A stretch of DNA of 64,000 nucleotides from Micromussa lordhowensis (lineage: Eukaryota; Cnidaria; Anthozoa; Scleractinia; Lobophylliidae), in NCBI GenBank assembly GCA_964020085.1, contig OZ026596.1, forward strand, positions 41,182,343-41,246,342. The letters run 5' to 3'. The position numbers and the translations under genes are program-made. Below the pieces are notes generated by a model. That model saw nothing but the letters and a program-made list of their open reading frames with translations, was not told the origin of the DNA and did not search any database. Positions 12,776-64,000 of the stretch are shown piece after piece (positions within the stretch are counted from its first letter, which is position 1; every line of letters starts with the position of its first letter).

Positions 12776-12777
<2 letters not shown>

Positions 12778-13054
12778 ACCTTTTGGCATTGTTCAATAAA
12801 AATGATTGTTAGTTTTTTTCTATAATTTACCTCAAAAAAAATTCATGATTTGTTCATCCGCTGATTACTCGGCGTGAAATAGACCGCAAAATACCGCGTT
12901 TACAAAACCTTTTTCAGTCATTTCAGTCCATAAACTGACATACAGTAGCTTGGGCGGCAACATATAAATGTTTGGTTCACTACCCTCACCTTTCACAAAT
13001 TAAGTTAAACCCTCAACAGCGTCATAAAAGGCAAAAACAACGTTCACTTACCTT

Positions 13055-14353: not shown

Positions 14354-14507
14354 TTTGGTACCCCGGATGTTATGGTGACAATAAGAACATTGGACACTAA
14401 AAATTAGTATGTGATAAAACTATGACAGTTTTTGATCTATTGTGTAAATGATAAAATAAAATGAATGTAACACGACTTTGAGGTTCATTTGTGTCTGGAG
14501 TCTGAAA

Positions 14508-15845: not shown

Positions 15846-15847
15846 GA

Positions 15848-16872: not shown

Positions 16873-17117
16873 AAGGTGGAAGTTTTACACGATTCAAACC
16901 TGACCCACAAGACGGAGGTGGCTTTGTCCAAGAACTGCTGAAAGCGAGTGTTAAGGGAGGTCTGAAAGGATTAAAAAGCGGTCGCGGTGTTCGAGATCGC
17001 ATTCGAAAGGCAAAAGAGGGTGTAACACGGAGTGCTAAGCGAGCTGTGAAACGTAAAGCTTACGAAGTCTTAGATAGAAACATCAAACGAAAATTCAACG
17101 ACATCTTCGACGACTAA
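16869..17117 (+). CDS. pVI-like small basic capsid protein
   Basis: 82 residues, Gly-rich at the N-terminus (MKGGSFTRF, DGGGFVQELL) then basic and helical. This is the size, position and composition of the adenovirus pVI-like membrane-active or cementing proteins in Polintons. A KGG near the start could be a protease maturation site. It overlaps the penton stop by ATGA and the next possible start by TAATG. Assignment rests on context and composition, not on a catalytic motif. Confidence 0.6.
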   Translation: MKGGSFTRFKPDPQDGGGFVQELLKASVKGGLKGLKSGRGVRDRIRKAKEGVTRSAKRAVKRKAYEVLDRNIKRKFNDIFDD

Positions 17118-17172
17118 TGAATCACATCTACTCCAGAAGCTCACGACTCGTCAAATCTAGAAAAGACTGTCA

Positions 17173-17547
17173 ATGTCATGCTTTGAAGGGTGCTCAAAAG
17201 CCTCGAAACGTCGCCGAAAGGTACAAAAAGGCGGATGGATTGGTCCTGGAGTCAGTAAACCCGTTGGCTACGATTGGGATCACATCTTAGCTAGAAGACA
17301 AAGGAGAAGAAGAAGAAGAAGAAGAAGAAGAAGAAGAAGAAGAAGAAGAAGAAGAAGAAGAAGAAGAAGAAGAAGAAGAAGAAGAAGAAGAAGAAGAAGA
17401 AGAAGAAGAAGAAGAAGAAGAAGAAGAAGAAGAAGAAGAAGAAGAAGAAGAAGAAGAAGAAGAAGAAGAAGAAGAAGAAGAAGAAGAAGAAGAAGAAGAA
17501 GAAGAAGAAGAAGAAGAAGAAGAAGAAGAAGAAGAAGAAGAAGATGA
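17173..17547 (+). CDS. Basic small protein ending in an 81-Arg run
   Basis: 124 residues. The first 43 are ordinary, including RKVQKGGWIGPG, a GG motif shared with other small proteins of this element. From there to the stop the protein is 81 consecutive Arg, all AGA codons of a microsatellite. The stop TGA overlaps the capsid ATG as ATGA, like neighbouring genes, which argues that this frame is the real one. An alternative 58-codon frame from 17117 to 17290 is possible but lacks the GG motif. Whether the Arg tract is translated is unknown. Confidence 0.5.
   Translation: MSCFEGCSKASKRRRKVQKGGWIGPGVSKPVGYDWDHILARRQRRRRRRRRRRRRRRRRRRRRRRRRRRRRRRRRRRRRRRRRRRRRRRRRRRRRRRRRRRRRRRRRRRRRRRRRRRRRRRRRR
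17301..17543. repeat. AGA/GAA trinucleotide microsatellite
   Basis: About 243 bp of uninterrupted AGA repeat lying inside a Polinton open frame. On the opposite strand it makes a poly-Ser frame, which I consider a shadow. Confidence 0.97.
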
Positions 17548-18900
17548 CCGATACCTTGATAGACGGTGGGCTATTACATCCGGGTTCAAAATCAGTTATG
17601 AATCCTCAACTGAATCTCTTCACGGTACCACCCACTGATCTTAGCATGTCGAGTTATCGCATCGTACCCATTCAGACCTATACGACAGGCATCAACCCCG
17701 TGGAATTCCAAGTGGATCCTCAAGAAGATTACGTGGACCTCAGTCGAAGTTTCTTTGAGGTTGAGTTGGCGCTAAAACTGGCCAATGGCGATAATGTGGT
17801 GGAAGCCACGAGACTCTGGCCCACAAACAATTTGGCCCACACTCTGTTCAAACAGATTAGTGTGCGACTCAATGGTACCTTGATTAGCCCTCAAACTGAT
17901 AACTATCATTATAAAGCATACCTGGAAACATTGCTCAACTACAACAGAGATGATGGAAAAACCGTGCTAAAAACCTCAAGGTTGGTACAATGCAGTGGAC
18001 TCTCCAATGCAAATGACTGTGAACAACACAAACACGGAAGGAGATGGACACGAAGCTTTCCAAGCATTGTCCTCTAACCAACAAGCTTCAGTGAAACTCA
18101 TGAAAGCAGAACAACGCAATTACACGGATGGAAAGCGACACGTGCTAAGGTTCACACCACACATTGAAGTGTTCCACTTGAACAAATTATTGGTACCAGG
18201 TGTGCAGATTGGAATCCAAATGTATTTCAATTCTCCCAATTTGTTCTTGAATGGTGTGAATGTAGCTGGAAGACTGACACATGAAAATGTCAAAGTGCGA
18301 ATGTACCTGTGTCAAGTAAGGCTCAACCCCAGCGTCTACCGAAAGCTGATGATGAACGTCAACAGAACCATGGTGGCTTACCCGACCGTGAGAAGTGAAA
18401 TTAGGACCTTCAACATGCAAGGCAACCAGCAAAGATACGAGTGCAACAATTTATTTCAAGGCCGAATTTCTAACAGAGTCATCGTGGGGCTTGTGCATTC
18501 AGATGCCTTCAATGGTAATGTGGCGCGTGACCCATTCTGTTTTCAAAAGTTTGGTGTGAGTAACATCAGGCAACTGGTCACAGGAGAAGAGTATCCTTAC
18601 AAGACCCTGGAACTAGTGCACAACGACAGTACTCAAGATTTGAGAGGTTACTATCGGTTCTTACAAGCCACAGGATGTTTGTGCAAGCATCAAGGAAACA
18701 TGGTGAGAAGTCAAGACTGGGGTCAAGGCAAGAATTGCACACTGTTTGTATTTGACAATGCAGCCAACGGTTGTTTGGACAGTCCAGTGCTGAATCCCAA
18801 ACAGTCAGGAGAGTTACAGATTGTGCTGAACTTCGGTGCACCACCAGGTAACAACATCACTGTCATCTTGTACGGAGAGTTGAGAACCTCTTGGAAATAG
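17544..18900 (+). pseudogene. MCP: Hexon-like major capsid protein, one frameshift
   Basis: The double jelly-roll major capsid protein of Polintons, about 450 residues. The N-terminal half (NLFTVPPTDLSMSSYRIVP, NPVEFQVDPQEDYVDLS) reads in one frame. At the A-run 17969-17973 the frame shifts by one, and the C-terminal half continues to TAG at 18900 (VLRFTPHIEVFHLNKLLVPG, LNFGAPPGNNITVILYGEL). One extra A explains the shift, so it may be a recent mutation or a base-call error. It lies directly upstream of the protease, in the usual capsid-protease-ATPase block. Confidence 0.9.
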
Positions 18901-18940
18901 ACAAGAACAAAGCCGTGTTGTACGACATTTACCAACGCTA

Positions 18941-19463
18941 ATGGAGAAAGTACCTCTGAATAACGTGCAACTGGATCATTTGGCGACAGCAGATGCCATC
19001 TTGAAACCCTACTTTTACGGCACGTTGGCTTGCGATCGATTACCAAGTCGACCAATCAAGAAAGAACCTCGTGGGTACATTGTGAACACAGATCCGCACT
19101 TTAGAGGGGGCCGACACTGGCTGGCACTTTGGACCCATAGTGGAAATGTATGCGAGGTAATGGACAGCTACGCCCTACCATTGGAGTCTTACTAGACAAC
19201 AGAGCCCCTGCAAGACTGGTCTGCGATCGATTTACAGTAAAAGTTGTGGCGATTACGCCTTCTTCTATTTAAAGGACAGAGCGAGAGGTCAAAGCATGAA
19301 CGAGTTCTTGAGACGTTTCTCGAAACATGATTATGTAAACAATGATCACAAAGTAGGCCAGATGTTAAAGAAGTTGATCGAGAAAGAGTTAGAATGGGGT
19401 CAAGTGTGTAAAATGAAACATAACCAAGAAACTTCTCGTTGCGGTGTAAGGCATTTAGTGTAA
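18941..19463 (+). pseudogene. PRO: Adenain-like cysteine protease, broken
   Basis: This protease matures capsid proteins. The catalytic His lies in GGRHWLALW, the acidic partner in VMDSYALP and the Cys in YSKSCGDYAFFYL, in the order expected for the adenain/Ulp1 group. An in-frame TAG at 19193-19195 follows the acidic residue. A frameshift near 19220-19232 then puts the Cys part in a different frame, which ends at TAA 19461-19463. Length over both parts is ~174 residues, near the family norm. Confidence 0.88.
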
Positions 19464-19506
19464 TGATTGCTGGTTTGACAATAAAATATGGTTCTGTGTA
19501 ATGATC

Positions 19507-19565
19507 TTGTAGTACAATGGTTCGTATCCTCTGGAGGTCAGGGATTGAACACCCACAACTCTAAT
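19507..19565 (+). other. tRNA-like fragment between protease and ATPase
   Basis: TAGTACAATGGTTCGTATCC closely resembles the D-arm and A-box stretch of the tRNA-Asp genes in this window. About 20 bp on, GGGATTGAACACCC is a degraded B-box. Acceptor strands do not pair, so it is at most a tRNA-derived relic or a chance match. Confidence 0.3.
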
Positions 19566-19626
19566 CTTTTTCTTTCCTTGTGGTTTCAAAAAGCGCATAC
19601 CTTTGCACCTTTGGTCATTTGGACTC

Positions 19627-20283
19627 ATGGAACGACGCGAGGCTTTTCGATTTCACACCCCTTCCAGTCTATTGGTGGTGGGTCCTTCAGGGTGTGGCAA
19701 GACGGTGTTTACCACCAACCTTTTACTGAACAATCTCGAATTATTTCATAACCCACCCTCCCAAATACATTATTGCTATGGGGTGTGGCAAGACGGGTTT
19801 CAACCCATGAAAGAACGGGGTGTCAAGTTTCACGAAGGCATTCCCGACACAGATCAATTGACAACGTGGTTTCCTAAAGGCGGTTTACTCGTGTTCGACG
19901 ATCTTATGGCTGAAGGAGGGAACGATAAGCGGATGCTAGATCTGTTCACTAAACATTCTCATCATCAGAACTAGACAGTGCTTTACTTATGCCAGGACAT
20001 GTTTCCGCCGGGGAAATATGCCAAAAGTATTTCCAGAAATGCTCACTACATCGTAGCCTTCAAGAATCCAAGAGATCAATTGGGCATGAGAAATTTACTG
20101 CTACAGGCGTTTCCCACTCAATGGCAAGTTTTACAAGACACGTTTCAATGTTTGACAGAACGTCCGTTTGGATACATGGTCTTGGATTTACATCCTGGCA
20201 GTTCAGACGATCAAAGGATTCTCAGCCACCTTTTAAAGGATGAAGGATGTATGCGATGTCACAAATTCATCGAGACACCATGA
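19627..20283 (+). pseudogene. ATP: FtsK/A32-type packaging ATPase with internal stop
   Basis: The genome-packaging ATPase. Walker A is GPSGCGKT and Walker B is GGLLVFDDLM. The later motif LYLCQDMFPPGKYAKSISRN and the segment VAFKNPRDQLG are typical of the Polinton branch. A single in-frame TAG at 19972-19974 splits it; both halves are in the same frame. Start ATG 19627 follows the tRNA-like spacer. The stop overlaps the next ATG as ATGA. Total length is ~218 codons. Confidence 0.9.
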
Positions 20284-20772
20284 TGAGCTCTTCCCAAGAT
20301 TCAATCACTACCGTATCTCTAATGAACGGATCCAAGAAAAGCGCTCAACTGTTAAACAAAGATTTGCTGTACCGATTGGATGGATTGTTTGCCTTTTACC
20401 ACCGTCAGCTTTGGCTTTGATCATCGTAGCAGCAGGCATCGTCGTAGGATCTGTCTTGGAAAACAGTCTCCTGATTTCCTGTTAAACGCCGCTGGAACTG
20501 TAATTAAAGGCTGGAACGACTTCAAAAAGTTTTCATTCAAAATCGACATGTGTCGCTTTGCCTACACCACTTATGACAAGACATTGATCGAATTGAGAAC
20601 CTACGTGCGAGGGCTTCCGATGGAGGAGTTTAAAGGATTTTTGATCAAGATGCAAACCTTGGATGACACAATCACTGACTTTACACCCCCGGTGTCTGAC
20701 AAATGCGTTCAAGAATACGAACAACGATTTCACTACGATCACGTCGATAAAAGCGGGAGCACTTTCGTATGA
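20280..20772 (+). pseudogene. Polinton protein of unknown function, frameshifted
   Basis: Starts at an ATG overlapping the ATPase stop. The first 46 codons end at TGA 20418-20420. The C-terminal ~110 codons read in another frame to TGA at 20772 (FKKFSFKIDMCRFAYTTYDK, VQEYEQRFHYDHVD). An Arg-rich stretch lies at the shift. I do not recognise a domain. Position after the ATPase and before the pX-like gene suggests a virion-associated role, which is inference. Confidence 0.55.
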
Positions 20773-20787
20773 GTGGTATTATGTGCC

Positions 20788-20985
20788 ATGAAGAGCAAGC
20801 GAACAGTTCGTAGAAAAACAAGGAGACGTAGGAAGACACAAAAAGGGGGGTTGTTTCCATTGGCAGCTCTCATTCCAGCTTTAGTCGCAGCTGGGAAGGC
20901 AGCGGCGCTAGGTGGAATCTCTGGTGCAGCGGGTTACGGTGTGAAAAAGGGTTTGCAAGCTGCTTCGCGAAAACGTCGAAGATGA
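20788..20985 (+). CDS. pX-like core peptide
   Basis: 65 residues: an Arg/Lys-rich N-terminus, then KTQKGG, then a hydrophobic Ala/Gly-rich segment (FPLAALIPALVAAGKAAALG) and a basic tail. This basic-GG-hydrophobic pattern resembles adenovirus pX and its Polinton counterparts, which are cleaved after GG by the adenain-like protease. ATG 20788 is chosen over upstream non-ATG starts. The stop overlaps the next gene as ATGA. Confidence 0.65.
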   Translation: MKSKRTVRRKTRRRRKTQKGGLFPLAALIPALVAAGKAAALGGISGAAGYGVKKGLQAASRKRRR

Positions 20986-21194
20986 AAAATAAACCAAAGA
21001 CCAAGAAAAGACGTAGACAGCGAGGTGGTGCACGAACTCGACGTAAGCATGATAAGAGACAACGCGGCGGTGCACTGTTGACTGTTCTCAAGAACGCGGC
21101 AAAGATCGGGTACAGGCTCGGAAAGGACAAGAGGTATAAGAGAATGGGTGCCACAGGCAGTTACAACAGACGTCCTGCACCGTGGGAAGTATGA
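20982..21194 (+). CDS. Small basic protein with two RGG sites
   Basis: 70 residues, highly basic, with two copies of QRGGA ~18 residues apart, each a plausible processing site for the element's protease. It may be a DNA-condensing core protein; no domain is recognisable. It overlaps both neighbours by ATGA. Confidence 0.55.
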   Translation: MKNKPKTKKRRRQRGGARTRRKHDKRQRGGALLTVLKNAAKIGYRLGKDKRYKRMGATGSYNRRPAPWEV

Positions 21195-21511
21195 TTCGGT
21201 TACGCAGACAACGCCCTTTCTTGGAGGCCATTCTAAAAGAGGCCAATCAAAACAGGAGACAGGAGATGTTAGAACATGCTAATGCAGATCAAATCAATGC
21301 CGTGAGCGAAATGGTTCTCAACCTACTACGAAACAGAATTCCCGTCCACCCGATCACCATGGCTAAACTGCATCGCTATAAGACAACACTGCGCGAGGTG
21401 GGGAAACGTAGAAACTCGGTCAAGAGGCGAAGAGAACATCTCCAAGAACAAAAAGGTAGCGGATTCTGGAGCGGATTGCAAGACTGTTTCAAAGCATGTT
21501 GCGTTCGATGA
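21191..21511 (+). CDS. Conserved Polinton helical protein, function unknown
   Basis: 106 residues, mostly helical and charged (FLEAILKEANQNRR, LLRNRIPVHPITMAKLHRYK, LREVGKRRNSVKRRREHL) with a Gly-rich then Cys-ending C-terminus. I recall similar proteins in cnidarian Polintons without assigned function. ATG 21191 overlaps the preceding stop. Confidence 0.55.
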   Translation: MIRLRRQRPFLEAILKEANQNRRQEMLEHANADQINAVSEMVLNLLRNRIPVHPITMAKLHRYKTTLREVGKRRNSVKRRREHLQEQKGSGFWSGLQDCFKACCVR

Positions 21512-21987
21512 AAGGACGTGATGAAAAGGGGTATCCCCTGGAAGGAGTGGACGTAGTACCGGAGCATAAAGGAAAACGGAAACCGTTATACAGTAAAGAA
21601 GAAGATTTTCATGCGGGCAAGATTGAATCCAACCTGTCTAGACTCGTTGAGCTATTGCAACAAGCCAACGAAAGAGTGGAAGAACTCAAAGACAATGTGC
21701 AATACTGGAGTCGTAAATACCATAGCTTATACCAAGAACACATGGCTTTAAAGTATGGGGACCTTTGCGAAAGGTGTCAGATTATCAAAGACACCACACC
21801 ACCCGGAGACACTATTACTGCGTGTACGAATTGCAGTCGAGATAGAGACACAGCAGCCAGTTTGAGGCTTAAACTCGAGAAGAAAGAGAGTGAACTCTGT
21901 TACTGGCAAGACTGCTACGAGACGTTACTCCAACAACATTTCGAGGATGACAGAAGAGGTTATGATGGTGCCCACGAAAGAGTTTGA
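21496..21987 (+). CDS. Coiled-coil protein with two CxxC pairs
   Basis: 163 residues. ESNLSRLVELLQQANERVEE and LRLKLEKKESELCYWQDCYE are coiled-coil-like. Between them CERCQ and CTNCS form two CxxC pairs about 23 residues apart, which could bind zinc. It overlaps both neighbours in other frames. Function is unknown. Confidence 0.5.
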   Translation: MLRSMKGRDEKGYPLEGVDVVPEHKGKRKPLYSKEEDFHAGKIESNLSRLVELLQQANERVEELKDNVQYWSRKYHSLYQEHMALKYGDLCERCQIIKDTTPPGDTITACTNCSRDRDTAASLRLKLEKKESELCYWQDCYETLLQQHFEDDRRGYDGAHERV

Positions 21988-22540
21988 CCAACTGGTTCAG
22001 TATTACAAAGGAGAAATCACCGACAATGCCTTGTTGAACAAAGCGGGACGATTGGCAGCAGAAAGTCACGTGATACTTCGCGATAAATCGATTCCAGATT
22101 CGATTGCCATCAAGAAAATTAAACCTTTAGCTCGTCAGAGAGGTCGTTTAACCAAACGTATCAGACATATTGGTCCTTTGTCGAGCAATGGTGCTGATGT
22201 CGGCGAAGAGGACGACGAGGAAGAAGGAGATTTGGTGAAGGGTCCGCTGGAGACCATGTTTAAACAATTGATTAAGCATTCTTCTCGAGGTACGAAGACA
22301 CCGAAGATCAAAGAAGAAGCTACACCGTCTACGTCAGGTGTTAAAAAGAAGTCACCCGCGAATAAAACACCCATTCCACCTGACTCGGAACTGGGAACGC
22401 TCCTAAGAAAAGCTGACATTCTCCTGGGTAAAGACAAACGTAAAGACAAGCGCAGACGTAAAAACGAGGCCGAACGGTTAAAGTGTTTCAAAGAAGCTTT
22501 TTATTTTCGGTTTCAAGAACTTTGCTCTTTGGTCACGTGA
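21947..22540 (+). CDS. Polinton protein with acidic centre and basic tail
   Basis: 197 residues beginning MTEEVMMVPTKEF. The N-terminal ~60 residues look folded (QLVQYYKGEITDNALLNKAGRL). The middle is acidic (EEDDEEEGD), then a Ser/Thr/Pro linker, then a KR-rich stretch. ATG 21947 was chosen since upstream codons overlap the previous gene. It is the last gene in the plus-strand structural cluster; no enzymatic motif is seen. Confidence 0.5.
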   Translation: MTEEVMMVPTKEFDQLVQYYKGEITDNALLNKAGRLAAESHVILRDKSIPDSIAIKKIKPLARQRGRLTKRIRHIGPLSSNGADVGEEDDEEEGDLVKGPLETMFKQLIKHSSRGTKTPKIKEEATPSTSGVKKKSPANKTPIPPDSELGTLLRKADILLGKDKRKDKRRRKNEAERLKCFKEAFYFRFQELCSLVT

Positions 22541-22558
22541 CCTGCCACGCTCAATTGC

Positions 22559-22570
22559 TTATATAAATTT
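22559..22570 (+). promoter_or_regulatory. TATA-like box
   Basis: TTATATAAATTT just after the structural gene cluster and ~240 bp before the small open frame at 22808. It could drive accessory genes. This is a motif match only. Confidence 0.3.
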
Positions 22571-22807
22571 GGAACCAAATTTACAATAGTTTGCAGTTGT
22601 AATCCTTGTTTATTTTTTTGTTTTATGCCAATGGCTGTAACCGTCAAGTTTACAGGGCTTGAGAAATTTATTTTGTTTCAATTACAACGTATATCCATTA
22701 GAAAGGGACTGGGACTAGGGAGAATTTGGAAATAATGACAATAGAATAAAACGTTTTCAGAATTCCCATTTAGAACGACATATAACCATCTTAAGGTAAG
22801 GTTTTAA

Positions 22808-23122
22808 ATGAAAACACGAGCGTTTGCTAGTACGTTTACAGCTTGTAACTTAAATGATCGTATTTCTTTCAATTTAAGGCCTGGTCAATCACGTGACCAC
22901 TTTAGTCGAGTAAATTGTCAGAATAGACTCATATTACATAAAAATAAACAATTAGATGCCAAGAGTTTAAGAAAAATACTAAATTTAGAAAAAAATGTCC
23001 AAAAGATCACACGACCAGTAATGATTTATGTACAAGACATTAAACGTTTAGCATTCAACATTGAGCATTCTCGGGTTGAAATAAATATTGTGTTACAAGC
23101 GAAGACAAGGTTTGAACTGTGA
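22808..23122 (+). CDS. Hypothetical 104-aa protein
   Basis: An intact, moderately basic frame with no recognised domain. It lies between the structural cluster and the minus-strand accessory gene and may be chance. Support is limited to its length and the upstream TATA-like box. Confidence 0.3.
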   Translation: MKTRAFASTFTACNLNDRISFNLRPGQSRDHFSRVNCQNRLILHKNKQLDAKSLRKILNLEKNVQKITRPVMIYVQDIKRLAFNIEHSRVEINIVLQAKTRFEL

Positions 23123-23258
23123 ATTGTTGTTTATTCTACAATTTGTAAGAAACGTGTAAGAAACGAGCATCTCCGTTTACTTTTCAAAAGCATCTGTCGC
23201 AAGTGTTTTTGTCATAACCCAGGTTTACAGAACACAAACTAATGGTTGCAAAACTGAA

Positions 23259-23780
23259 TCAGTCTAAAAAGAAATTGTTGTCTTCTAAAAGCGCGAGTTC
23301 AGCTTTCATATCAGCAATGTTGCTTTCCATACCTGGACAACTTTTTATCTCCGATGTAAGTACACTTTGCTTACAAGAATTGTCAATTATGTCCTCGACC
23401 CAGTCAAAAGTTTCGGGTATCTGGCTCGTTGATGAGACAAGCTCCGGTACTAAAGTTTGAGGTATGGTTGCATCCGGTAACGAAACAGACATTCCCTGAC
23501 TAAAACCAAAATCAATGGCGTCTATTACGTTTGACTGCTTAGACGGTCGCTCGCTGTGATTAATGACAAAGTCGTCTAGCGGGTCGAAAGTCTGAAACGC
23601 TTCCATGGCTTGCTGTATAATGTCTCCTTCGCCGACCATCATTTTTTTCTTCTTTGATCTGTACTTTTGCATGTACTTTCTGCCTTCTTCTCTGTGTGTT
23701 GCGCGATAATTTCGCCCATAAATGCGTAGTCTTTCCGCATTAGCCTGCCGCCATTTCTTCTTAGATTCCTTCCTATTCAT
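23259..23780 (-). CDS. Accessory protein, basic N-terminus and acidic C-terminus
   Basis: 173 residues from ATG 23780. Residues 1-50 are strongly basic with a repeated pattern (ERLRIYGRNYRATHREEGRK, YMQKYRSKKKK). The rest holds acidic-hydrophobic clusters (TFDPLDDFVI, ETFDWVEDIID) of the kind found in transactivation domains. The overall layout suggests a DNA-binding regulator, but no known fold is evident. It is transcribed towards the structural cluster and away from the palindrome-rich region. Confidence 0.5.
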   Translation of the reverse strand: MNRKESKKKWRQANAERLRIYGRNYRATHREEGRKYMQKYRSKKKKMMVGEGDIIQQAMEAFQTFDPLDDFVINHSERPSKQSNVIDAIDFGFSQGMSVSLPDATIPQTLVPELVSSTSQIPETFDWVEDIIDNSCKQSVLTSEIKSCPGMESNIADMKAELALLEDNNFFLD

Positions 23781-24210
23781 TTTCGTGCTAGCTGAATGAT
23801 TCTCCAAGTTGAACTTGTACCCGCGTAAAATAAGTCGTTATCAGAACATTTTTATTTTTAAAGAGAAGACAGTCATCTTAATATGAAAAGCATCTCCACT
23901 TACAGCTCATTCAATTAAATGACAATACATTTAACTATTGTAAGGTGCAATGAGAAACCGCGTTGAAATAAAACCTAATGCCGAGGAAACCAACTTTTAG
24001 ACTCGTAAAACTAATATTTCTTCCCCGCAATGTTGGCAAAACCGCTTTTTATCAACGCACTTCAAATATGACTCTTTCTAACCGAATTGTCTATCCATAT
24101 GGCCTACCTTTTTGTTGAGAAACACTTTTAGTCCGAGTTAATTTCGTTACGCCGCTACCTGGAGCATCGAGTTGTAGGTTCTATCACAAAGCGTCGGTAT
24201 TTCTTGACAA

Positions 24211-24238
24211 GTAAGTGGAGATCATTGTCTCCACTTAC
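24211..24238. promoter_or_regulatory. 28-bp palindrome, copy A
   Basis: GTAAGTGGAGA and TCTCCACTTAC arms around ATCATT or close to it. It could be an operator for a dimeric protein or an RNA hairpin. Confidence 0.65.
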
Positions 24239-24257
24239 ACAACTTCAATTGAACGCT

Positions 24258-24420
24258 ATTGTTCACTAGTCAACGTTGGTAAATGAAACTTTTCCAGATA
24301 ACTACAGAAAACTTTACAAAACTTAGGATCTGAAAAGAACTTACGCTCAAAATATATAAATATATTATATATACTCATTTCAAGAAAAGCAATGGTTAAA
24401 ATCTCAGAAAACATAGAAGT
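24258..24420 (+). pseudogene. Duplicated promoter and 5' end of RING-like gene
   Basis: Closely matches 24783-24930, including the TATA-like stretch, TCATTTCAAGAAAAGCAATGG and TCAGAAAACA. After the ATG at ~24391 the frame soon leaves resemblance and no RING cysteines follow. A relic of a tandem duplication. Confidence 0.6.
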
Positions 24421-24608
24421 CAGTTGGGAAAAAGACACTTTTTTATCAGGTTGTTGTAATTATATTATTGCCCATTCACATGTTCTATCTTTTGTTGGGA
24501 ACGTTGCTTAATCAAAACACAACACGTTTCAAAAAACATAGTGAAGCATCGAGTTTAATGTTGTTGTGGATTTTAATGACAAAGCGGCGGTAAACCTTGA
24601 GAAGGCTA

Positions 24609-24636
24609 GTAAGTGGAGACCGTTGTCTCCACTTAC
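24609..24636. promoter_or_regulatory. 28-bp palindrome, copy B
   Basis: Perfect 12-bp arms GTAAGTGGAGAC/GTCTCCACTTAC around CGTT. Followed by the same ACAACTTCAATTGAA text as copy A. Confidence 0.7.
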
Positions 24637-24717
24637 ACAACTTCAATTGAATGCTATCGTTTACTAGTCGAATACCTGGACCGTCGAATTAAATGTTATT
24701 GTAGGTCTTCTTCAGAA

Positions 24718-24745
24718 GTAAGTGGAGACCATTGTCTCCACTTAC
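24718..24745. promoter_or_regulatory. 28-bp palindrome, copy C
   Basis: Perfect 12-bp arms around CATT, ~150 bp before the RING-like start codon. Confidence 0.7.
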
Positions 24746-24896
24746 ATCCAATTGAACGCTATTGTTCACTATAGTCGAAGTTAGTAAATAAAACTTTTCC
24801 AGATAACTACAGGAAACTTTACAAAACTCAGTTAGGATCTGAAAAGAACTTACGTTCAAAATATATATCTTATATAAACTCATTTCAAGAAAAGCA

Positions 24897-25398
24897 ATGG
24901 CCGAAATGTCAGAAAACAAGTGCATCGTCTGTTTGTCAGAAGTCACAGAACCTTTCCTCCTTCAATGCTGTCGATAATGACTGTTTTTCTACATGGGTCG
25001 GTACGTGCCACAACCAAAACAATTCAGTAACTTGTCCTCACTGCAGGACTCAGTTAATAGAAACTGGAGAGATCGTAATGGATGAAGCAAATCTTGAAGG
25101 TGAGGACTTCTTTTCTCTGTTAGGTGAGGAGATAATGCAAGAAGAAACCCCTGCCCCGAGTCCTACAAACGAGTTTACGGAACAGTTTATGTCTAGAATA
25201 AGACATATTTGGCGTGAACGTCCTTTTTGGCGGGATGACAATGGAGAATGGATGGGCCAAATTCGAGACTGCATAGATGGTTATGTCATGACCGTATCGC
25301 TAGGAATCCAACCGACAACTATACAAGAAAACATGGATATTTATGTTTTTTATTTCGATCGCTATCAAATGTACTACGGATGGGAGCATTATCAATAA
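24897..25398 (+). pseudogene. RING-like protein with WRxRPFW module 1
   Basis: ATG 24897 follows TATATAAA at ~24871. CIVC then QCC in the first frame, and DCFSTW then CPHC in a second frame, give a RING-like zinc pattern; one base too many near 24975 (TAA 24975-24977) separates them. After an acidic linker comes the module IWRERPFWRDDNGEWMGQI and a stop at 25398. RING proteins are commonly ubiquitin ligases, which here would be a viral host-modulation gene by inference. Two GTGAGG donor-like sites at 25100 and 25124, both phase 1, lie between RING and module. Confidence 0.55.
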
Positions 25399-25418
25399 TA
25401 GTATTTATTTTTTCTCAG

Positions 25419-25640
25419 AAACAGTTTTAGAGTACCCAGCTGTGTGGTTCCTGTGGAGGGAGAGACCGCTTTGGCAAAGGGGGTCTACTTATTTTGGACA
25501 AATGATCGATGCCACGACAGGATTTTTATTAATAATTATGTTAGGTGATATCACCGAAATTGAAGCAATGTACACGATACGATCATGCAACACGATCCTC
25601 AGCAACGATTCAGTACTTATCATAATTATCAATTTTCATC
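25419..25640 (+). CDS. WRxRPxW module 2, possible alternative terminal exon
   Basis: Preceded by a pyrimidine tract and CAG (acceptor at 25418). It reads FLWRERPLWQRGSTYFGQMI, aligning with module 1. Joined to the phase-1 donor at 25124 it stays in frame. Its tail resembles that of module 3 only in another frame, suggesting a small indel near 25570-25590; in its own frame it runs on into module 3. Confidence 0.4.
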
Positions 25641-25733
25641 ATCTGCCTCCAATCAATAAGATTTCAAATTACGTTTCCACTCTAGGTCTGTTTGAAAACA
25701 TCTTTTTTTGTTTCTTCTCTATTCGTTTTGTAG

Positions 25734-25954
25734 CAGAGAAATTTAGAATGATATGGCGTCAACGTCCATTTTGGAGACTGCACAATGCGGAATATTACGG
25801 AGAAATCTTTAATGCTAACAATGGTCATTTAATAATTGTGGACGAAATACTGCATAATATGAGAAAGTCAATTGCAAACTTCGATCCTCATCAAAGGCAT
25901 TCCGAGGCGTCTGATTATAATTTATCTAATGTAGACACGATAAGACTTTTGTAA
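25734..25954 (+). CDS. WRxRPFW module 3, possible alternative terminal exon
   Basis: Preceded by a long T/C tract and TAG (acceptor at 25733), in frame with the same phase-1 donor. It reads MIWRQRPFWRLHNAEYYGEI, then a tail DPHQRHSEASDYN and a stop at 25954. The family is unknown to me. Confidence 0.45.
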
Positions 25955-26090
25955 AGGGATGCTGGTCATAGGATTGCAGCACACGTTCCCACTTGTAAAT
26001 GTGAATTTTATTTGAAAAACATGTTGTTGTATGATTTGTAAAGGGACGCTGGTCATAAGATTGCAGCACACGTTCCCACTTGTAAATAGG
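25951..26090. repeat. 87-bp subterminal tandem duplication
   Basis: GTAAAGGGATGCTGGTCATA at 25951 recurs as GTAAAGGGACGCTGGTCATA at 26038. The second copy lies in the right inverted repeat; the left end has only one. Confidence 0.85.
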
Positions 26091-26353
26091 TGGCTAAGTA
26101 GAAAAAGTAAATGTAAATTTTCTTTAAAAAAACATGTTGTTGTGTGATTCGTGAGTGTGAGCGAATGAGCGCGCGAAACTATGCGTGAAACATCACGTGA
26201 CTTTACTTGCGCGACCCTTCGTTGCGTGACTCCTGAACAAGAGAGGGCGTCACGCTGCGCGTGACGCTTCACACGTCTTTTCTTGCGCAACCCTTAGCCA
26301 TCAGACCTCAACATCAGATCGAGCTTTTAGGCCCTAGTCGCGCCCATATAACT
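26025..26353. repeat. Polinton right terminal inverted repeat
   Basis: Inverted copy of 13055-13383, with the hairpin at 26247-26267. Ends CCCATATAACT. Confidence 0.95.
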
Positions 26354-26870
26354 ACTTATCTTCACGTACCAAATAAGCCCCCATGCCTCTAGCTCCACTT
26401 AAACCCAATATATTGCTTGGATAACGTTATGGGTCATTTATAAAATTATTCTCAAAAATAGCAGATAGAAATGCCTAAGAGCTGCAAATACGCCATTAAT
26501 TTTTGCAAGTAATACCGCACAAGCGAATAGTGCTTTTTACGAGTTATGATTGGTTAACTCGGAAGTGTTCCACTACGGTGAATAATTAACAATAATTTAT
26601 TATTGGACAAGGTTGAGCAATATATATTGATCTGAGAGACACTGACAAATCACGTTATTTTGCGATAACCGAGTTTAATAATTGTTTTATCATTCGATCA
26701 CCAAGTTTGTTTTTATATTTAAATCACTCTCTGACAGCTCAGGGAAGCGATCTGCGATTTTTCACACAAGAGCGTGGTCTCAATTACGCATGAGCAGAAT
26801 ATTATTTGCAGCAAAGCACATTTAGACGGTACTTTCGCATGAGCAGACCATTATTTGTAGTCAGTTATTT

Positions 26871-26896
26871 GTAGCTCAAGTGGTAGGTTCTCGGCC
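26871..26896 (+). other. Orphan tRNA-Ala-like 5' half, repeated in each unit
   Basis: GTAGCTCAAGTGGTAGGTTC has the D-arm and A-box form of tRNA-Ala, but no anticodon arm or B-box follows. It recurs ~180-200 bp upstream of every tRNA-Asp. A direct repeat CGCATGAGCAGA (26787 and 26836) precedes it. Probably a tRNA relic. Confidence 0.4.
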
Positions 26897-27074
26897 AGTG
26901 AAAATGAAGGGAAAATGCATCGAATGATAAAATTAATTGTTTTTATCTTTAACTGGGATAAGCATTCAGGGTATTTATTAGCAGGGCTCCTCTGGAGATC
27001 ATTCACGCCTGATCCTTGCCTACTTATCCTACACAAAATAAGTACACAAAGAGCTTCTTCACTCTTTATCCTAA

Positions 27075-29997: not shown

Positions 29998-32532
29998 TCA
30001 AAGATGGAAGACAAGCTCCCCACAAGTAGTAGAACAAACGACACCGGAGGCGCCCCAGTGGCGCAAAAAATAGCGCTTACGACGAGGCGAGACAAAACGC
30101 TTGAAAAACAAAGGAAGGTAGAAACGCAAGCGGGCTTTGAGAGCAGCGAGAAGGGCAACAGCCTCAGGACGAGAGGACCGAAAACGACAATCATTCCGCT
30201 GTGACCAGACCAAAAATTTGAGTGAGTGGAGCAGATAGACAAAAACCCGGGGAACGACAAGCAACTCATCCGGACTAAAACCAAAAAGAACGTGACGCAG
30301 CACAATAGAAGGGGAAAGAGGGGCAGCCCGAAAGAGGAGGGACTGGATCCAATCGATACCGCTCTTAGCAAGAGGGCAGTGGAAAAACAGGTGCTCAGCT
30401 GACTCGAGATGAAAGCCACAGAAACAAGCAGCGGGGAGGCTATAACCGAAGGAAAGGAGACGGTCCATGGTGAGAAGAGCACCATGGGACACTTTCCAGG
30501 CCAAATCAATCACCTTGCGGTCTAGTGGCATAAAGGATAGTTGGGTCCACGTAGAGGACCAGTACAAGTCACCAAAGACAGGACGAAACTTGCTAACACA
30601 GTGCGGAACAACATGTGTTAGGTCAAGAAGGCGCGCGTAAGTGGATTTACAAGTAACAGTGGAAACCAAAACCCTAACACCAGAGAGGCCACTAATGGAG
30701 GGAGTGCCAGAAGGGGCAACAGAGCCACCAATGGCACACCAGGCCCGGAGCACAGCAGCATAGAAGGGGGGAAGTCGGCGGAGAGCAAAATTAAAAGGGG
30801 TGGACAGCAGGGTGGTAGGGTCCACGCCAAACCGATCAAAACACCAGTAGGTCAACAGGGAGACCCAGGCACTGGGAGAAGCTGCAAAGCGCTTGACCCA
30901 CTGAATCAAAAGGGCTTGGACTTTGAGGTCGATGGCGACAACGGCAAAACCACCACAATCCCTAGGCTGAACAACAACTTTCCGACTAACTTTGTCCTTT
31001 TTACCAGCCCAGAAGAAGTTAAAAAGTAGAGTGTTAAGCTTTCGAAGTACCCAGTGCGGCATGTGAACGAGCGAGGCCACGTACCATATGCGCGAAAGCG
31101 CCAGGGCGTTGGCAACAAGCGCACGGCCAGAAAAAGACAAGGAACGGATGCTCCAGGAAGCCAGACATTTGGTAACCGAATCAATGCGGGGGCGCCAGTT
31201 GGCCGAGTCGAGATCGCCAAACCCGATAAAAACACCAAGGACCTTGATCATCAGCTCCGACCAGTCAATGTTGACTGGAGAGTCCGAGCGGGTACGCCAG
31301 GCGCCAAGCCAAAGACCTTTGCACTTCTCAAGATTTAATTTCGATCCAGAAGCCTTCTCAAAACGGCTGTAGACCTCAAAAACGGCCTTGATACCATTGT
31401 CTGAGTTCACGATGGCAGACGTATCGTCGGCATAAAGAGAAACAACAGGGAGAGGGTACGGGACGCCGGGCAACAAGATCCCACAAATATGAGGATGTCC
31501 CCTGAGGTTGACAGCAAGAACCTCCATAGTCAGAATGTACAAAAGGGGGGAGAGCGGACAGCCCTGCCTAACACCCCTAGAAGGGAAGAATACGGGCGTG
31601 CTATAGCCATTAAACAAAACGCTACTACGGACATTAGAGTACAGAAGACGCACCCATCTAATGAAAGAGGAGCCGAAACCCATGCGTTGAAGGGTGTGAA
31701 ACATAAACGCCCAATCGACTCGGTCAAACGCCTTCTCTTGATCCAAAGAGAGGATGGCAGCCGGAATGTTAGACTCACTGGTGTAGCTCACCAGATCACG
31801 AAGCAGCGAGACGTTCTCTCCAATAAAGCGGCCTGGAACCCCACAGGTCTGATTAACATCAACAACGTGATGAATTACTCGAAGCAATCTGCCAGCTAGG
31901 GATCTTGCGCAGAGCTTGTAGTCTGCATTGAGCAGAGTAATCGGTCTCCAGTTTTTGCGATCAAGCCTGTCCCCCTTCTTGAAGCTCAGGGAAATGAGAC
32001 CCTTGCGCAAAGAGGAGGGGAGGCACCCAGTTTTATAAGAAGCGTTGAGAACGGACACCAAATCCTCACCAAGAACATCCCAGAATGCCCAGTAGAATTC
32101 AGCAGGGAGGCCATCAGACCCAGGTGATTTGTTCTTGGCCATACCCTGAAGGGCCGTAAACACTTCGTTAGTCGAAAAAAGGCCTTCACATTGAGAAACC
32201 TCAGAGGATGGAAGGAAAGACCTGAGCATGTCGAGCATTTCGGCCTGAACCACACAGTCAGTGGGCTCCGCCGTAAAGAGGGCGGAGTAAAAAGAGAGCC
32301 AAGCAGCAGAAATACCATCTTTGTCAACAGCGATCACACCGTCATCAGCCCGGATGGCAGAGATCCAACCAGTAGAACCATTTTTCTTCTCTAAGCGGAA
32401 GAAAAAGGAGGAGGAGGTTTCTCCCTCCTCTGCCCAACGTACGCGGGAGCGCACCTTGGCCGAAAGGGCCTCGGTCTGCTCAAACTCAGCCAATTTAAGA
32501 AGCGTAGACTGGTAAACGTCAAAACAAGACAT
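29998..32532 (-). pseudogene. LINE ORF2, reverse transcriptase part
   Basis: 844 codons. RT motifs in order: NWRPITLLNADYKL, LSLDQEKAFDRVDW with the first catalytic Asp, GVRQGCPLSPLLY, and YADD with the other two, then the thumb. Near the C-terminus, ACFCGFHLESAEHLFFHC is the CCHC zinc segment found after RT in L1/Tx1 elements. The frame is open but detached from the endonuclease by a frameshift near 32605-32620. The ATG at 32532 is probably not a native start. Confidence 0.92.
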
Positions 32533-33518
32533 TAGGCCATCATCAATGCGATTTTTAAGATGAGTGGCAAGGGCAGTGAGAAGGGACCGGGAAGTCTCCC
32601 TGTCCCGCTTTTGATAGAGCCAAAATGAATTGCAATACGCTTAATTTTCCGCTTGCCAAAATCCCACCATTTTGAAAGGGAGGAAAAAAGCCCCTTCCTC
32701 CGCTGCCACGACCTCCAGAAGGTACGAACCTCAGCACAAAATAAGTTCTCCGCTAAAAGGGAAGTATTCAACTTCCAGCGTCCAGGGCCTCTAGGAATAA
32801 CCTCAGGAATCGAGAGCGAAAGGGAGACAATCGAGTGGTCCGAAAAGGGACAAGGACATATAAGGCAGGACGAGATAAACGGAGCCCAAGCAAAAGGCAC
32901 GCCAATAAGATCGATCCTGGACTTGATGGAACCATCAGGCTTTGACCAGGTGAAAGATTTAGCAGTCGGATGACTGAGGCGCCAAGCATCCAGGACACAG
33001 CAGTCACGGAAAAGCCCAGACAAAAGAGCAGAACTGTCTCTACTGTAGTCGAAAGGGCAAGAACCCCACCGATCCAAAGTGCGGTCAAAAACAGAGTTGA
33101 AGTCCCCGCACAAAAATGTGTGCACAGAGGGATCAATTTTGGCCAAGACAAAAGAGAAAAAATCATTCCGGTCCGGATTAACATTAGGGGCGTACAGAGA
33201 CGCAACACGGAAAAATTTGCCACGGAAAGAGAAATCACAGAGAACAAAGCGGCCCTCAGTGTCACAGAAAGACCCAGAAAGCAAAAAGATGGGCCTAAAA
33301 AGAATGACAGTCCCCCTAGCATGATTGGAGCCAGGAGAAACAAAGGAACGATACCCAAAAGAATCAAACCAAGAGGAACCCTCAGCCGAAGTCAAAACAT
33401 GAACCTCTTGGAGGCAAACTATGTCAAGAGAGAGATGGCTGAGCCAGTGCAAAAACCCCATCCTCTTGTTGCCATCACGTATCCCGTTAACATTGATTGT
33501 GGCTATAGACACAGCCAT
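32532..33518 (-). pseudogene. LINE ORF2, APE-type endonuclease part
   Basis: Residues ~1-235 form an AP-endonuclease-like domain: ATINVNGIRD, IVCLQEVH with the catalytic Glu, SLYAPN, LCGDFNSV and SDHSIVSLSL with the terminal His. It nicks target DNA to prime reverse transcription. After ~residue 300 the frame is wrong because of the ORF2 frameshift and ends at TAA overlapping the RT ATG. ATG 33518 lies 2 bp past the ORF1 stop. Confidence 0.92.
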
Positions 33519-33520
33519 AG

Positions 33521-34543
33521 TTAAGCATTGTTGGGCGAAACAAGACTCTCAACAGAATCCGAGATACTTCCATGGGAGACAGACCGAGAGCGCGAACGCT
33601 CGACATTCACAGCAGGAGTGATTCGCCTTCTCCGCTGAGAAGGGGGAGGCGAGATCTGGACCCTAACCACAGAGGCGTAGGAAACCGCCCCAGCACCATC
33701 CGGAAGGGCAGAGCCTGACGAGGACCCTTCAGAAAGCGAACGCTTCCGAGGGTTGACAGTGCCCATATCCACATCCACAAGGGAATCCGGAACGCTATCA
33801 CCATCATGGGCAACGCCCATACCACTCAAAATACTCTGCGACAGCTCACTAAACTCACTAAGCTCATTATCCCGAGTATCAAGGGAGTCGTCAGTGACAA
33901 CGGAATTTTGGGGATCAGCATTCAAAAGAACAGAGTCGGTAACAGAGGCAGAGCCCAGCTCAGCCGCAGGATCACAATTCTCGACCAGGTTAGGAATCGT
34001 ATCAGCATTATGGCCAACATTTTGGACATCTTGAACCACATTTTGGACCTCTTCTTGGACCCCTTTTTGAGCCTCATTGTGAACCACATTAATATTTTGG
34101 ACCTCATTTTGGACCTCATTTTGGACACCCTGCACAGGATCCTCACTCGGAGGAACGCCCACCGGGGGGTCCTGGGCATCAACAAAAGCACGATCACGAA
34201 TGGGGCAATTGCGAGCAATGTGCCCTTCTCCTTTACACCTTAAACATTTCCCTTTATAGGGACAAGAAGCCGCCTTATGCCCACCTTCGTTACAGATATT
34301 GCATCGTATGGTCTGACCTCTGTGCCAGAGGCGACAATAATAACCACTAATTGTGATATACCGAGGCAATTCATCAACTTCCTCATGTAAGGTCATGCGA
34401 ATGAGGCGCGACCCCGTGTAGATGTCCATATCCTCATAGGGATATTTTTGAAAGCGAAAGCTTTTAAAGTCGCCAAAATCACCCAAAGCTTCAATAACAG
34501 GCTCCATCGGGCCTTCAAAGGGATAAGCAAAAGCAACGTTCAC
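33521..34543 (-). pseudogene. LINE ORF1, Gag-like with two CCHC knuckles
   Basis: 340 codons open to the 5' junction. Two zinc knuckles, CNICNEGGHKAASC and CLRCKGEGHIARNC, suggest RNA binding as part of the retrotransposition RNP. A repetitive NEVQN/VQ-rich linker, an acidic Ser-rich stretch and an RRRR basic patch follow. The N-terminus is missing: its first codons are array DNA at the junction. CCHC-bearing ORF1 fits Tx1-clade elements. Confidence 0.88.
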
Positions 34544-61470: not shown

Positions 61471-62332
61471 CATTTTTGCATTGTTCAGTAAAAATGATTG
61501 TTAGTTTTTTTCTATAATTTATCTCAAAAAAATTCATGATTTGTTCATCCGCTGATTACTCGGCGTGAAATAGACCGCAAAATACCGCGTTTACAAAACC
61601 TTTTTCAGTCATTTCAGTCCATAAACTGACATACAGTAGCTTGGGCGGCAACATATAAATGTTTGGTTCACTACCCTCACCTTTCACAAATTAAGTTAAC
61701 CCCTCAACAGCGTCATAAAAGGCAAAAACAACGTTCACTTACCTTCACCTACCAAATAAGCCCCCATGCCTCTAGCTCCACTTAAACCCAATATATTGCT
61801 TGGATAACGTTATGGGTCATTTATAAAATTATTCTCAAAAATAGCAGATAGAAATGCCTAAGAGCTGCAAATACGCCATTAATTTTTGCTAGTAATACCG
61901 CACAAGCGAATAGTGCTTTTTACGAGTTATGATTGGTTAACTCGGAAGTGTTCCACTACGGTGAATAATTAACAATAATTTATTATTGGACAAGGTTGAG
62001 CAATATATATTGATCTGGGAGACACTGACAAATCACGTTATTTTGCGATAACCGAGTTTAATAATTGTTTTATCATTCGATCACCAAGTTTGTTTTTATA
62101 TTTAAATCACTCTCTGACAGCTCAGGGAAGCGATCTGCGATTTTTCACACAAGAGCGTGGTCTCAATTACGCATGAGCAGAATATTATTTGCAGCAAAGC
62201 ACATTTAGACGGTACTTTCGCATGAGCAGACCATTATTTGTAGTCAGTTATTTGTAGCTCAAGTGGTAGGTTCTCGGCCAGTGAAAATGAAGGGAAAATG
62301 CATCGAATGATAAAATTAATTGTTTTTATCTT

Positions 62333-62579
62333 AGTAGTGTAGGAAATGGGGGAACTAGGACATTTCTGGATTTTACGCATCTCAGCGTAGTTAGTGTAAA
62401 AATCTGAGTCTAAAATATATGATATAATACACTGAAACAGCGTGGTTATGCGTAGGTAGTGTAAGTAGCGTAGATATCGTAAAAATTAGACATACTATTT
62501 TACGCACAAAAATGCCTGAAATGCGTAGGATAGTGTAGGATATAGTAAAATTTAGATTGTTCTCACGATGCGTAATTTT
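62333..62579. repeat. Subterminal repeat region of second element
   Basis: Repeated GCGTAG-based motifs: GCGTAGTTAGTGTA, GCGTAGGTAGTGTA, GCGTAGATATCGTA and GCGTAGGATAGTGTA. No gene. Probably part of a terminal inverted repeat. Confidence 0.6.
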
Positions 62580-63569
62580 TTAAGACTTGATAAATTTCCA
62601 ACCAGCGTTCTCACCACCTAGATGTTCACAGATTTTTTTCCAAATTTTATCATGTTCATAGAGTTTTAAACGATCTTTATACAATTTTAGCTTTGGTAAA
62701 AATTCATTATATCCAAGTATTTGACAAAATTTATAAATGATATATGAATAGGAAAAGAAATTTCTTCTATTTTTACCTTTAAATAATTCAAATGGCTCCT
62801 GAATTTGTAAAAACCTCATTTTCATTTTTTCTTCCATTATAGAAGTCATTTGTAATGGAGGTATTTTTGTTATTCTATACAATATTTGGGTGGTATGATT
62901 ATAATAATTTAATTTACGATGTTTTTTAAGATGTCTTTTGATATCTGATTCAGTTAACTTTTCCAAAGAATTTTCCATCCTTTCACGAATGATTTCTTTG
63001 AAAATATTATTAATAACATCTTCTGAGACTTTAAAACTTTCTTTGCCTTGGATATTGGCTAAACAGTCACAAAAATGATTATATCTTTTGTAATCATTTT
63101 CTGCGGTTTTTATAGATGATTTTTCTGGATTTGTTGAGACATTTATGCTTATTCCACAACTTAGACAAGTACTTATCCCTTCATCGACGTTCAATACTCG
63201 AAATTTTTCACATGTATAACAATAGTTATCTTCATTTATATTATTTTCACTGTATTGTAGTTCATCAGGGAAGATATTATATTTATACCTTTTATAATAA
63301 GAATTATCAACAACAAAATGTTTTGCTCTATTTTCTGTATGTAAAAAAAGTAAAATAGCATTCTTTAATAAATAACTAGTACGAAGATTTTTGATATCAT
63401 TTATTTCATTTTCTAACCTTATTTGTTCAATTTGATCAATTCTAGAATAATCTTTTTTGATGGATAAATTTAGAATTTTTTTTTTTAAATCTGGTATTTT
63501 TTTTTCTTTGAGAACAATTTCTGAAATTTTTTTACGATGTAGATTGCCAATGGTCTCTTTGTTCATCAT
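62580..63569 (-). CDS. VLTF3-like late transcription factor
   Basis: 329 residues. A coiled-coil-like N-terminus is followed by a zinc ribbon, CYTCEKF...STCLSCG (~120-145). Then come conserved stretches of the poxvirus-type late transcription factor 3 family: KRYNHFCDCLANIQGKES, IKRHLKKHRKLNYYNH, FFSYSYIIYKFCQILG and DKIWKKICEHLGG, ending at the C-terminus as usual. In large DNA viruses this protein activates late genes. The family is a hallmark of Nucleocytoviricota and I do not regard it as part of the standard Polinton set. The frame is intact, which suggests a recent or active element. Confidence 0.85.
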   Translation of the reverse strand: MMNKETIGNLHRKKISEIVLKEKKIPDLKKKILNLSIKKDYSRIDQIEQIRLENEINDIKNLRTSYLLKNAILLFLHTENRAKHFVVDNSYYKRYKYNIFPDELQYSENNINEDNYCYTCEKFRVLNVDEGISTCLSCGISINVSTNPEKSSIKTAENDYKRYNHFCDCLANIQGKESFKVSEDVINNIFKEIIRERMENSLEKLTESDIKRHLKKHRKLNYYNHTTQILYRITKIPPLQMTSIMEEKMKMRFLQIQEPFELFKGKNRRNFFSYSYIIYKFCQILGYNEFLPKLKLYKDRLKLYEHDKIWKKICEHLGGENAGWKFIKS

Positions 63570-63574
63570 AATAA

Positions 63575-63760
63575 TTAATATACTTTATTCTTTAAAGTAG
63601 AGTAATCTTCACTCTCACTGCTCGTTGATTCCTCACTGCTCGTTGATTCCTCACTGCTCGTCGATTCCTCATCTGAATCAGGATTATAATCACTGTCACT
63701 ACTATCAGTATCATGAAGTGGGTCTTCAGTTAAAAATTTTTTAAAATTAGGGACAGGCAT
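63575..63760 (-). CDS. Small acidic Ser/Glu repeat protein
   Basis: 61 residues with three tandem STSSEE repeats from an 18-bp DNA repeat (~63617-63670). The sequence is acidic and probably disordered. It lies 5 bp upstream of the VLTF3-like start, so the two may share a transcript. Function is unknown. Confidence 0.55.
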   Translation of the reverse strand: MPVPNFKKFLTEDPLHDTDSSDSDYNPDSDEESTSSEESTSSEESTSSESEDYSTLKNKVY

Positions 63761-63765
63761 ATATA

Positions 63766-64000
63766 TTATGAAATATTAAAATTTCCATATGCATAACTAC
63801 TGATACCATCATCTAAAATATATCTTTTATCATCAAAAGGTGATAATGATACTTTATTAATTTGGTAACTAGATATCTGATGATACTCTGACCGGATAGT
63901 TCGCATCTTATGCCTCATAGTATTACATTTTTGTAAGGTATCACGATAATCAGAGAGAGATAATTCACTCTTAATGACATTCTTCTTGACACCTTTAGCA
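63766..64000 (-). CDS. PolB: Probable protein-primed PolB, C-terminal end, partial
   Basis: 77 codons open to the window edge. GVKKNVIKSELSLSDY, IRSEYHQI and LSPFDDKRYILDDGISSYAY match in order the C-terminal signature I know from Polinton/adintovirus-type DNA polymerases. The catalytic motifs lie outside the window, so the call rests on this tail alone. It ends ~5 bp before the acidic gene. Confidence 0.6.
   Translation of the reverse strand, partial: AKGVKKNVIKSELSLSDYRDTLQKCNTMRHKMRTIRSEYHQISSYQINKVSLSPFDDKRYILDDGISSYAYGNFNIS

What the first reader, a model, noticed from the sequence alone, without database searches (positions are those of the whole stretch)
62333..64000. Intact VLTF3-like gene beside a Polinton-type PolB tail in a second element
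VLTF3 is a hallmark of large nucleocytoplasmic DNA viruses. The adjacent PolB end looks like the protein-primed type of Polintons and adintoviruses, and the element starts with AG as Polintons do. The combination, with undamaged frames, may represent an endogenous virus lineage bridging these groups in an animal genome.
Basis: partly seen in the sequence, partly recalled or inferred. Interest (0 to 1): 0.78.

Follow-up and report, generated by a model that had tools for sequence, protein, structure and literature searches.

The report
Coral Polinton carrying giant-virus transcription gene
A complete virus-like jumping element, present in many near-identical copies in a stony coral genome, carries an intact gene for a transcription factor otherwise treated as a trademark of giant viruses and poxviruses.

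Summary
Window 62333 is the exact left end of a complete Polinton/Maverick in a stony-coral genome: perfect 245-bp terminal inverted repeats starting AG, a 6-bp target duplication, 23.8 kb long (12 of the 14 copies with both ends found are 20.1-20.3 kb). Past the window lie the rest of a 1340-aa PolB, integrase with chromodomain, PLA2-like and protease-like proteins, a double-jelly-roll capsid protein, an A32-type ATPase and fibre-like proteins. VLTF3 is flush against the terminal repeat, matches Pfam PF04947 (2.8e-40), keeps four zinc cysteines, and is open in 122 of 122 copies scored in the main search; mean dN/dS between subfamilies is about 0.29.

VLTF3 is a fixed part of this lineage: 60 of 62 of its scored capsid genes have it at the expected place (two untestable), against 0 of 38 of a sister Polinton lineage in the same genome. 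So it was most likely gained, probably from a giant virus. A predicted zinc ribbon plus cyclin-like domain suggests a TFIIB-like late factor working with host RNA polymerase; this is inferred. Polinton-type viruses of corals, and VLTF3-bearing 'adintoviruses' of Amoebidium, are already in print, hence a new variant of a known kind.

The parts
62327..62332 (.). left copy of the 6-bp target-site duplication TATCTT
   Evidence: same 6 bp follow the far terminus; the 13 other copies with both ends found also have identical 6-bp flanks
62333..62577 (.). left terminal inverted repeat, 245 bp, begins AGTAGTGTAGG
   Evidence: all 12-mers of its 245 bases are found in register, inverted, at L011:3897-4141
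62580..63569 (-). VLTF3-like gene (328-329 aa): N-terminal helices, CxxC...CxxC zinc ribbon, C-terminal helical domain
   Evidence: Pfam PF04947 2.8e-40; AlphaFold2 pLDDT 85.9; 39 viral-library fold hits at E<=1e-3; no internal stop in 122 of 122 scored copies
63575..63760 (-). small acidic serine-rich ORF (61 aa) between VLTF3 and PolB; repeat number varies between copies
   Evidence: no Pfam match
63766..64000 (-). C-terminal end of PolB (1340 aa in all; the rest lies beyond the window, L009:1766-5788)
   Evidence: exonuclease and polymerase motifs found by pattern

Best explanation
It is the left end of a complete, recently mobile Polinton/Maverick (endogenous polintovirus) of a stony coral, whose lineage gained a VLTF3 gene at its extreme end, most likely from a nucleocytoplasmic large DNA virus (NCLDV). 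Shown: Polinton gene set, perfect terminal repeats, 6-bp target duplications, many near-identical copies, VLTF3 with a dN/dS well below 1 and fixed in this lineage but not linked to the capsid genes of a sister lineage. Inferred: the element is copied by its own PolB and inserted by its integrase; VLTF3, a zinc ribbon plus cyclin-like domain resembling TFIIB, acts at the start region of late (capsid) genes and recruits the host's nuclear RNA polymerase, since no RNA polymerase gene was recognised among the element's scanned ORFs.
Confidence: 0.6

Rival explanations
1. VLTF3 is ancestral to Polintons and giant viruses and was kept by this lineage but lost in its sisters.
For: It sits beside PolB and has a low dN/dS. 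Amoebidium elements with adintovirus-type PolB also carry VLTF3 (PMC11244446, passages).
Against: 0 of 38 sister MCPs have VLTF3 downstream on the same strand. Protein hits: 79 for VLTF3 against 2589 for MCP (1510 and 5159 candidates scored). The eight closest rows are one clade nested among environmental VLTF3s.
Confidence: 0.15
2. VLTF3 serves a virophage-like life: the element's late genes are expressed in, or it interferes with, the factory of a coral-infecting giant virus, whose late transcription VLTF3 mimics or competes with.
For: VLTF3 in NCLDVs is a late factor (established knowledge). Integrated virophages and Polinton-like viruses acting on giant viruses are described in protists (abstract beginnings in listings).
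Against: No coral giant virus or shared late promoter was identified here; none was specifically sought in the host genome. The element has its own PolB and capsid genes.
Confidence: 0.2
3. VLTF3 is a passenger without function, amplified with the element.
For: Copies are young, so decay would be slight; some copies are broken.
Against: Mean dN/dS about 0.29 between subfamilies; 122 of 122 copies scored in the main search without internal stop; the 14 columns invariant over 34 sequences are kept, zinc cysteines included.
Confidence: 0.05

Closest known systems
Polintons of stony corals (polintoviruses; Stephens et al. 2024, Virus Evol. veae039: seen only as a citation with its title; paper not held)
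   Same: host group (title); hallmark gene set and high copy number (recalled)
   Different: whether VLTF3 is noted there could not be checked
Amoebidium 'adintovirus' insertions (PMC11244446, passages)
   Same: VLTF3 together with adintovirus-type PolB and major and minor capsid proteins; some insertions complete (~30 kb) with long terminal repeats
   Different: protist host, Dam methyltransferase present; the passages seen give no fold, selection or lineage-linkage test of VLTF3
Mriyaviruses (PMC11253617, passages)
   Same: small genome with VLTF3, capsid protein and ATPase but no RNA polymerase
   Different: lack DNA polymerase and use a HUH endonuclease; here PolB and integrase are present
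VLTF3 in the sea anemone Exaiptasia (PMC5294986, passages)
   Same: VLTF3 in a cnidarian genome
   Different: reported as a single core gene amid metazoan genes, grouped with Asfarviridae; no Polinton link stated in the passages seen

Membership tests
Polinton/Maverick | long terminal inverted repeats starting AG | tested here: met
   245 bp, identical
Polinton/Maverick | 6-bp target-site duplication | tested here: met
   14 of 14 copies with both ends among the 40 scored ends
Polinton/Maverick | retroviral-type (RVE) integrase | tested here: met
   rve 3e-7 (31.1 bits, just under the cut-off of 32.6), Chromo 5e-7, above its cut-off; NCBIfam IS481 1.1e-11 and IS3 4.4e-9, partial and far below their cut-offs
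Polinton/Maverick | protein-primed PolB | tested here: inconclusive
   exonuclease and polymerase motifs by pattern (motif meanings recalled); no PF03175 match; terminal protein not tested
Polinton/Maverick | adenovirus-type cysteine protease | tested here: inconclusive
   PF00770 E 0.014, below cut-off
Polinton/Maverick | A32/FtsK-type packaging ATPase | tested here: met
   PF04665 6.8e-14
Polinton/Maverick | double-jelly-roll major capsid protein | tested here: met
   [not shown]
Polinton/Maverick | minor capsid (penton) protein | tested here: inconclusive
   255-aa ORF near the capsid gene, no Pfam match; no fold made
VLTF3 family | Pox_VLTF3 domain and zinc-binding cysteines | tested here: met
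   PF04947 2.8e-40; C116, C119, C134, C137 invariant in 34 aligned sequences
VLTF3 family | acts in late transcription | not testable with these tools
   needs experiment
Nucleocytoviricota | large genome with D5 primase and, in cytoplasmic members, RNA polymerase genes (recalled) | tested here: not met
   20-24 kb element of Polinton structure; no such Pfam hit among the ORFs scanned
Mriyaviruses | HUH endonuclease and no DNA polymerase | tested here: not met
   PolB present
TFIIB-like factors | zinc ribbon followed by cyclin folds | tested here: inconclusive
   [not shown]

The most novel reading that the evidence does not exclude
A Polinton lineage of animals captured a giant-virus late initiation factor (and also carries an eIF1/SUI1-like translation factor), giving it NCLDV-style control of its late genes through host RNA polymerase: a living case of the step by which small Polinton-type viruses are thought to have become giant-virus-like. 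VLTF3 would then no longer be diagnostic of Nucleocytoviricota.
Probability: 0.35. Interest if true: 0.78.

Novelty: new variant of a known kind. Interest (0 to 1): 0.6.

Why it matters
[quoted passage not shown] Here VLTF3 is a fixed gene of a complete Polinton with many intact copies, so VLTF3 alone cannot be taken as proof of a giant virus. It also gives a testable system in an animal for how a small virus without its own RNA polymerase might use a TFIIB-like viral factor.

Tried and rejected
Chance or chimera: rejected. VLTF3 lies beside the PolB tail in 20 of 20 divergent copies read, chosen from the 122.

Ancestral VLTF3: disfavoured by the sister lineage. Three of the 38 sister MCPs do have a VLTF3 within 20 kb, but upstream or on the other strand; for two of them, neighbours on C2, that gene lies at the usual distance from a VLTF3-lineage MCP. 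I fetched 9 of the 38 sister places. Five could be read 2.3 kb or more past PolB and show no VLTF3 (one of them with a masked part), a sixth shows none within 0.56 kb, and three were uninformative: one mostly masked, one without a PolB match, one not reaching the place.

A VLTF3-specific promoter: a TATA/ATAT word in -8..-1 occurs at 12 of 15 gene starts (shuffle mean 4.5, 0 of 5000 as high), but I chose the word, and the sister has it at 4 of 7. Two of the 17 starts listed (integrase, protease) were dropped because their start codons are unsure. K-mer counts over 80 bases: best 6-mer 10 against a shuffle 95th percentile of 11, best 7-mer 8 against 7, best 8-mer 5 against 5.

Free viral relatives: six scans of viral contigs found none. 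Genome context of the environmental VLTF3s could not be fetched. A PDB sequence search with PolB gave nothing below E 0.7. PHROGs and NCBIfam added integrase and ATPase support but nothing for VLTF3. A second VLTF3 protein search gave unnamed sequences only. BLAST of our PolB against the other window Polinton's PolB fragment was weak (E 0.005).

Papers. In their listings I recognised no paper on a VLTF3-bearing coral Polinton; Starrett 2021 and Stephens 2024 are not held.

Full report
What is there. The stretch 62333-64000 is the left end of a complete integrated element. The VLTF3-like ORF (62580-63569, minus strand) matches Pox_VLTF3 at 2.8e-40. The neighbouring open frame is the end of a 1340-aa PolB. 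The window lies in a 580.8-Mb genome, contig C2. Its 68 GFP-family matches, and an exon closest to Dronpa and Azami-Green among PDB chains, place the host among stony corals; that these two proteins come from corals is recalled.

Anatomy. The 245 bases from 62333 recur, inverted and identical, at the far end of the 23.8-kb element, and TATCTT flanks both ends. It is inserted in a tandem array of tRNA genes. From left to right: VLTF3, a 61-aa acidic ORF, PolB, integrase with chromodomain (rve 3e-7, Chromo 5e-7), PLA2-like protein (1.1e-10), a protease-like ORF (0.014), two 237-aa ORFs of unknown type, capsid protein, a 129-aa ORF, a 255-aa and a 341-aa ORF, then on the other strand a packaging ATPase (PF04665, 6.8e-14), fibre-like proteins (T7 tail-fibre N-terminal domain 1.2e-10, YadA stalk 4.9e-5), an eIF1/SUI1-like protein (3.6e-10) and a 159-aa ORF. 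VLTF3's stop codon is 2 bases from the inner end of the terminal repeat. Our copy holds a perfect internal duplication, at least 2975 bp, with its second copy about 3.6 kb further on, which accounts for its extra length.

Copies and mobility. A search with 228 bases of the terminal repeat scored 40 of 431 candidates, all 40 identical to the query. Fourteen copies have both ends among these; 12 are 20,110-20,279 bp, the others 23,809 (ours) and 28,839 bp (for 13, ours). All 14 have identical 6-bp flanks that differ from site to site. VLTF3: 122 of 387 candidates scored, all 122 without internal stop, 95-100% identical. A search with a distant, longer relative (P0057) scored 114 of 333; the two lists share 36 places and give 200 distinct ones. 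In that second list 104 rows count one stop, 8 two or more and 2 none; for the 36 shared places one search counts none, so the single stop is there the terminal codon, while rows with two or more are probably broken.

Selection. Of 29 VLTF3 copies (ours, L001-L008, L018-L037), 27 were read and two dropped by my start pattern. They gave 24 distinct sequences and 276 pairs; the 162 pairs with dS above 0.03 have mean dN/dS 0.29. The pairs are not independent.

VLTF3 belongs to this lineage. A capsid search with a 61%-identical relative (P0216) scored 100 of 785 candidates: 62 of the VLTF3 lineage (62% identical to that query) and 38 of a sister lineage (68-79%). Forty-four of the 62 have a listed VLTF3 downstream on the same strand, 9.7-15.4 kb away; none of the 38 has, though 3 of the 38 have one within 20 kb upstream or on the other strand. 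Of the remaining 18, 16 showed VLTF3 next to PolB when read directly (six of these stretches partly masked, and several genes matched only in part), one was masked, and in one the stretch ended inside PolB. So 60 of 62 against 0 of 38. Sister PolB is 52% identical over 1366 aligned positions in the copy on C14. Of 9 sister places fetched, five could be read 2.3 kb or more past PolB and a sixth 0.56 kb; none shows VLTF3; three were uninformative.

Origin. The protein search gave 79 VLTF3 relatives from 1510 candidates against 2589 of 5159 for the capsid protein. A tree of 47 rows (ours and 46 of the 99 VLTF3 proteins found) puts ours with seven proteins from long ENA contigs, 79-99% identical (hosts not named), in one clade (100/100, stem 0.75) inside a clade of 19 rows otherwise environmental (98/99); its nearest sister is not resolved (a 69-row quick tree agrees). 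Two relatives in that clade lie on contigs of 52 and 146 kb, too long for a free Polinton. That hints at a giant-virus or protist donor, but their context was not readable here.

Mechanism. Best reading: a self-copying Polinton whose late genes are switched on by a TFIIB-like viral factor with the host's nuclear polymerase. Mriyaviruses, which also carry VLTF3 and no RNA polymerase genes, are thought by their authors to replicate in the nucleus (PMC11253617, passages). A TATA/ATAT word directly before the start codon marks 12 of 15 genes but also 4 of 7 sister genes, and was chosen after looking; it may be a core promoter used with or without VLTF3, or mere AT-richness (95% A+T in those 8 bases).

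Literature. VLTF2 and VLTF3 were called not detectable outside Nucleocytoviricota (PMC11253617, passage). Against that, Amoebidium insertions with VLTF3 and adintovirus-type PolB are reported (PMC11244446, passage), a lone VLTF3 in Exaiptasia (PMC5294986, passages), and endogenous Polinton-type viruses in stony corals (cited in PMC12220804, passage). Cnidarian capsid genes were noted to fall outside the main Maverick-Polinton cluster (PMC10120064, passages). I could not check whether the coral paper mentions VLTF3.

Verdict. A real, complete and well-supported element; a new variant of a known kind, with an inferred but testable mechanism.

Noticed in passing
L011:3031-3291 (own element) and L069:2658-2984 (sister): eIF1/SUI1-like translation factor genes inside or at the end of Polintons (Pfam SUI1 3.6e-10 and 9.2e-13). 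A search for Polinton with SUI1 listed three papers, none obviously on this (listing only).
   Followed up: partly
window 13367-22540: A second, different Polinton with broken frames: PolB fragment (PF03175 2.1e-8), integrase pieces 38-54% identical to ours; no VLTF3 hit in 12001-27000.
   Followed up: partly
window 12360-61467: tRNA-Asp, tRNA-Pro and tRNA-Asn genes, mostly in tandem units of about 2.2 kb; ARAGORN finds 43 tRNA genes in the window.
   Followed up: no
window 29998-34543: Retrotransposon with long open frames (reverse transcriptase, endonuclease, zinc-knuckle ORFs) within the tRNA array.
   Followed up: no
L009:7026-10000 and L010:635-3609: Perfect internal duplication of at least 2975 bp in this copy, covering the PLA2-like, protease-like and a 237-aa gene; a recent event or an assembly artefact.
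   Followed up: partly
L010:8541 to L011:2675: Fibre-like proteins with a T7 tail-fibre N-terminal domain and YadA-type stalk, in an element otherwise of Polinton type.
   Followed up: no
[not shown]
   Followed up: no
G000:C8:5291528-5320366: One copy with intact ends is 28.8 kb, about 8.6 kb longer than usual, suggesting an insert.
   Followed up: no
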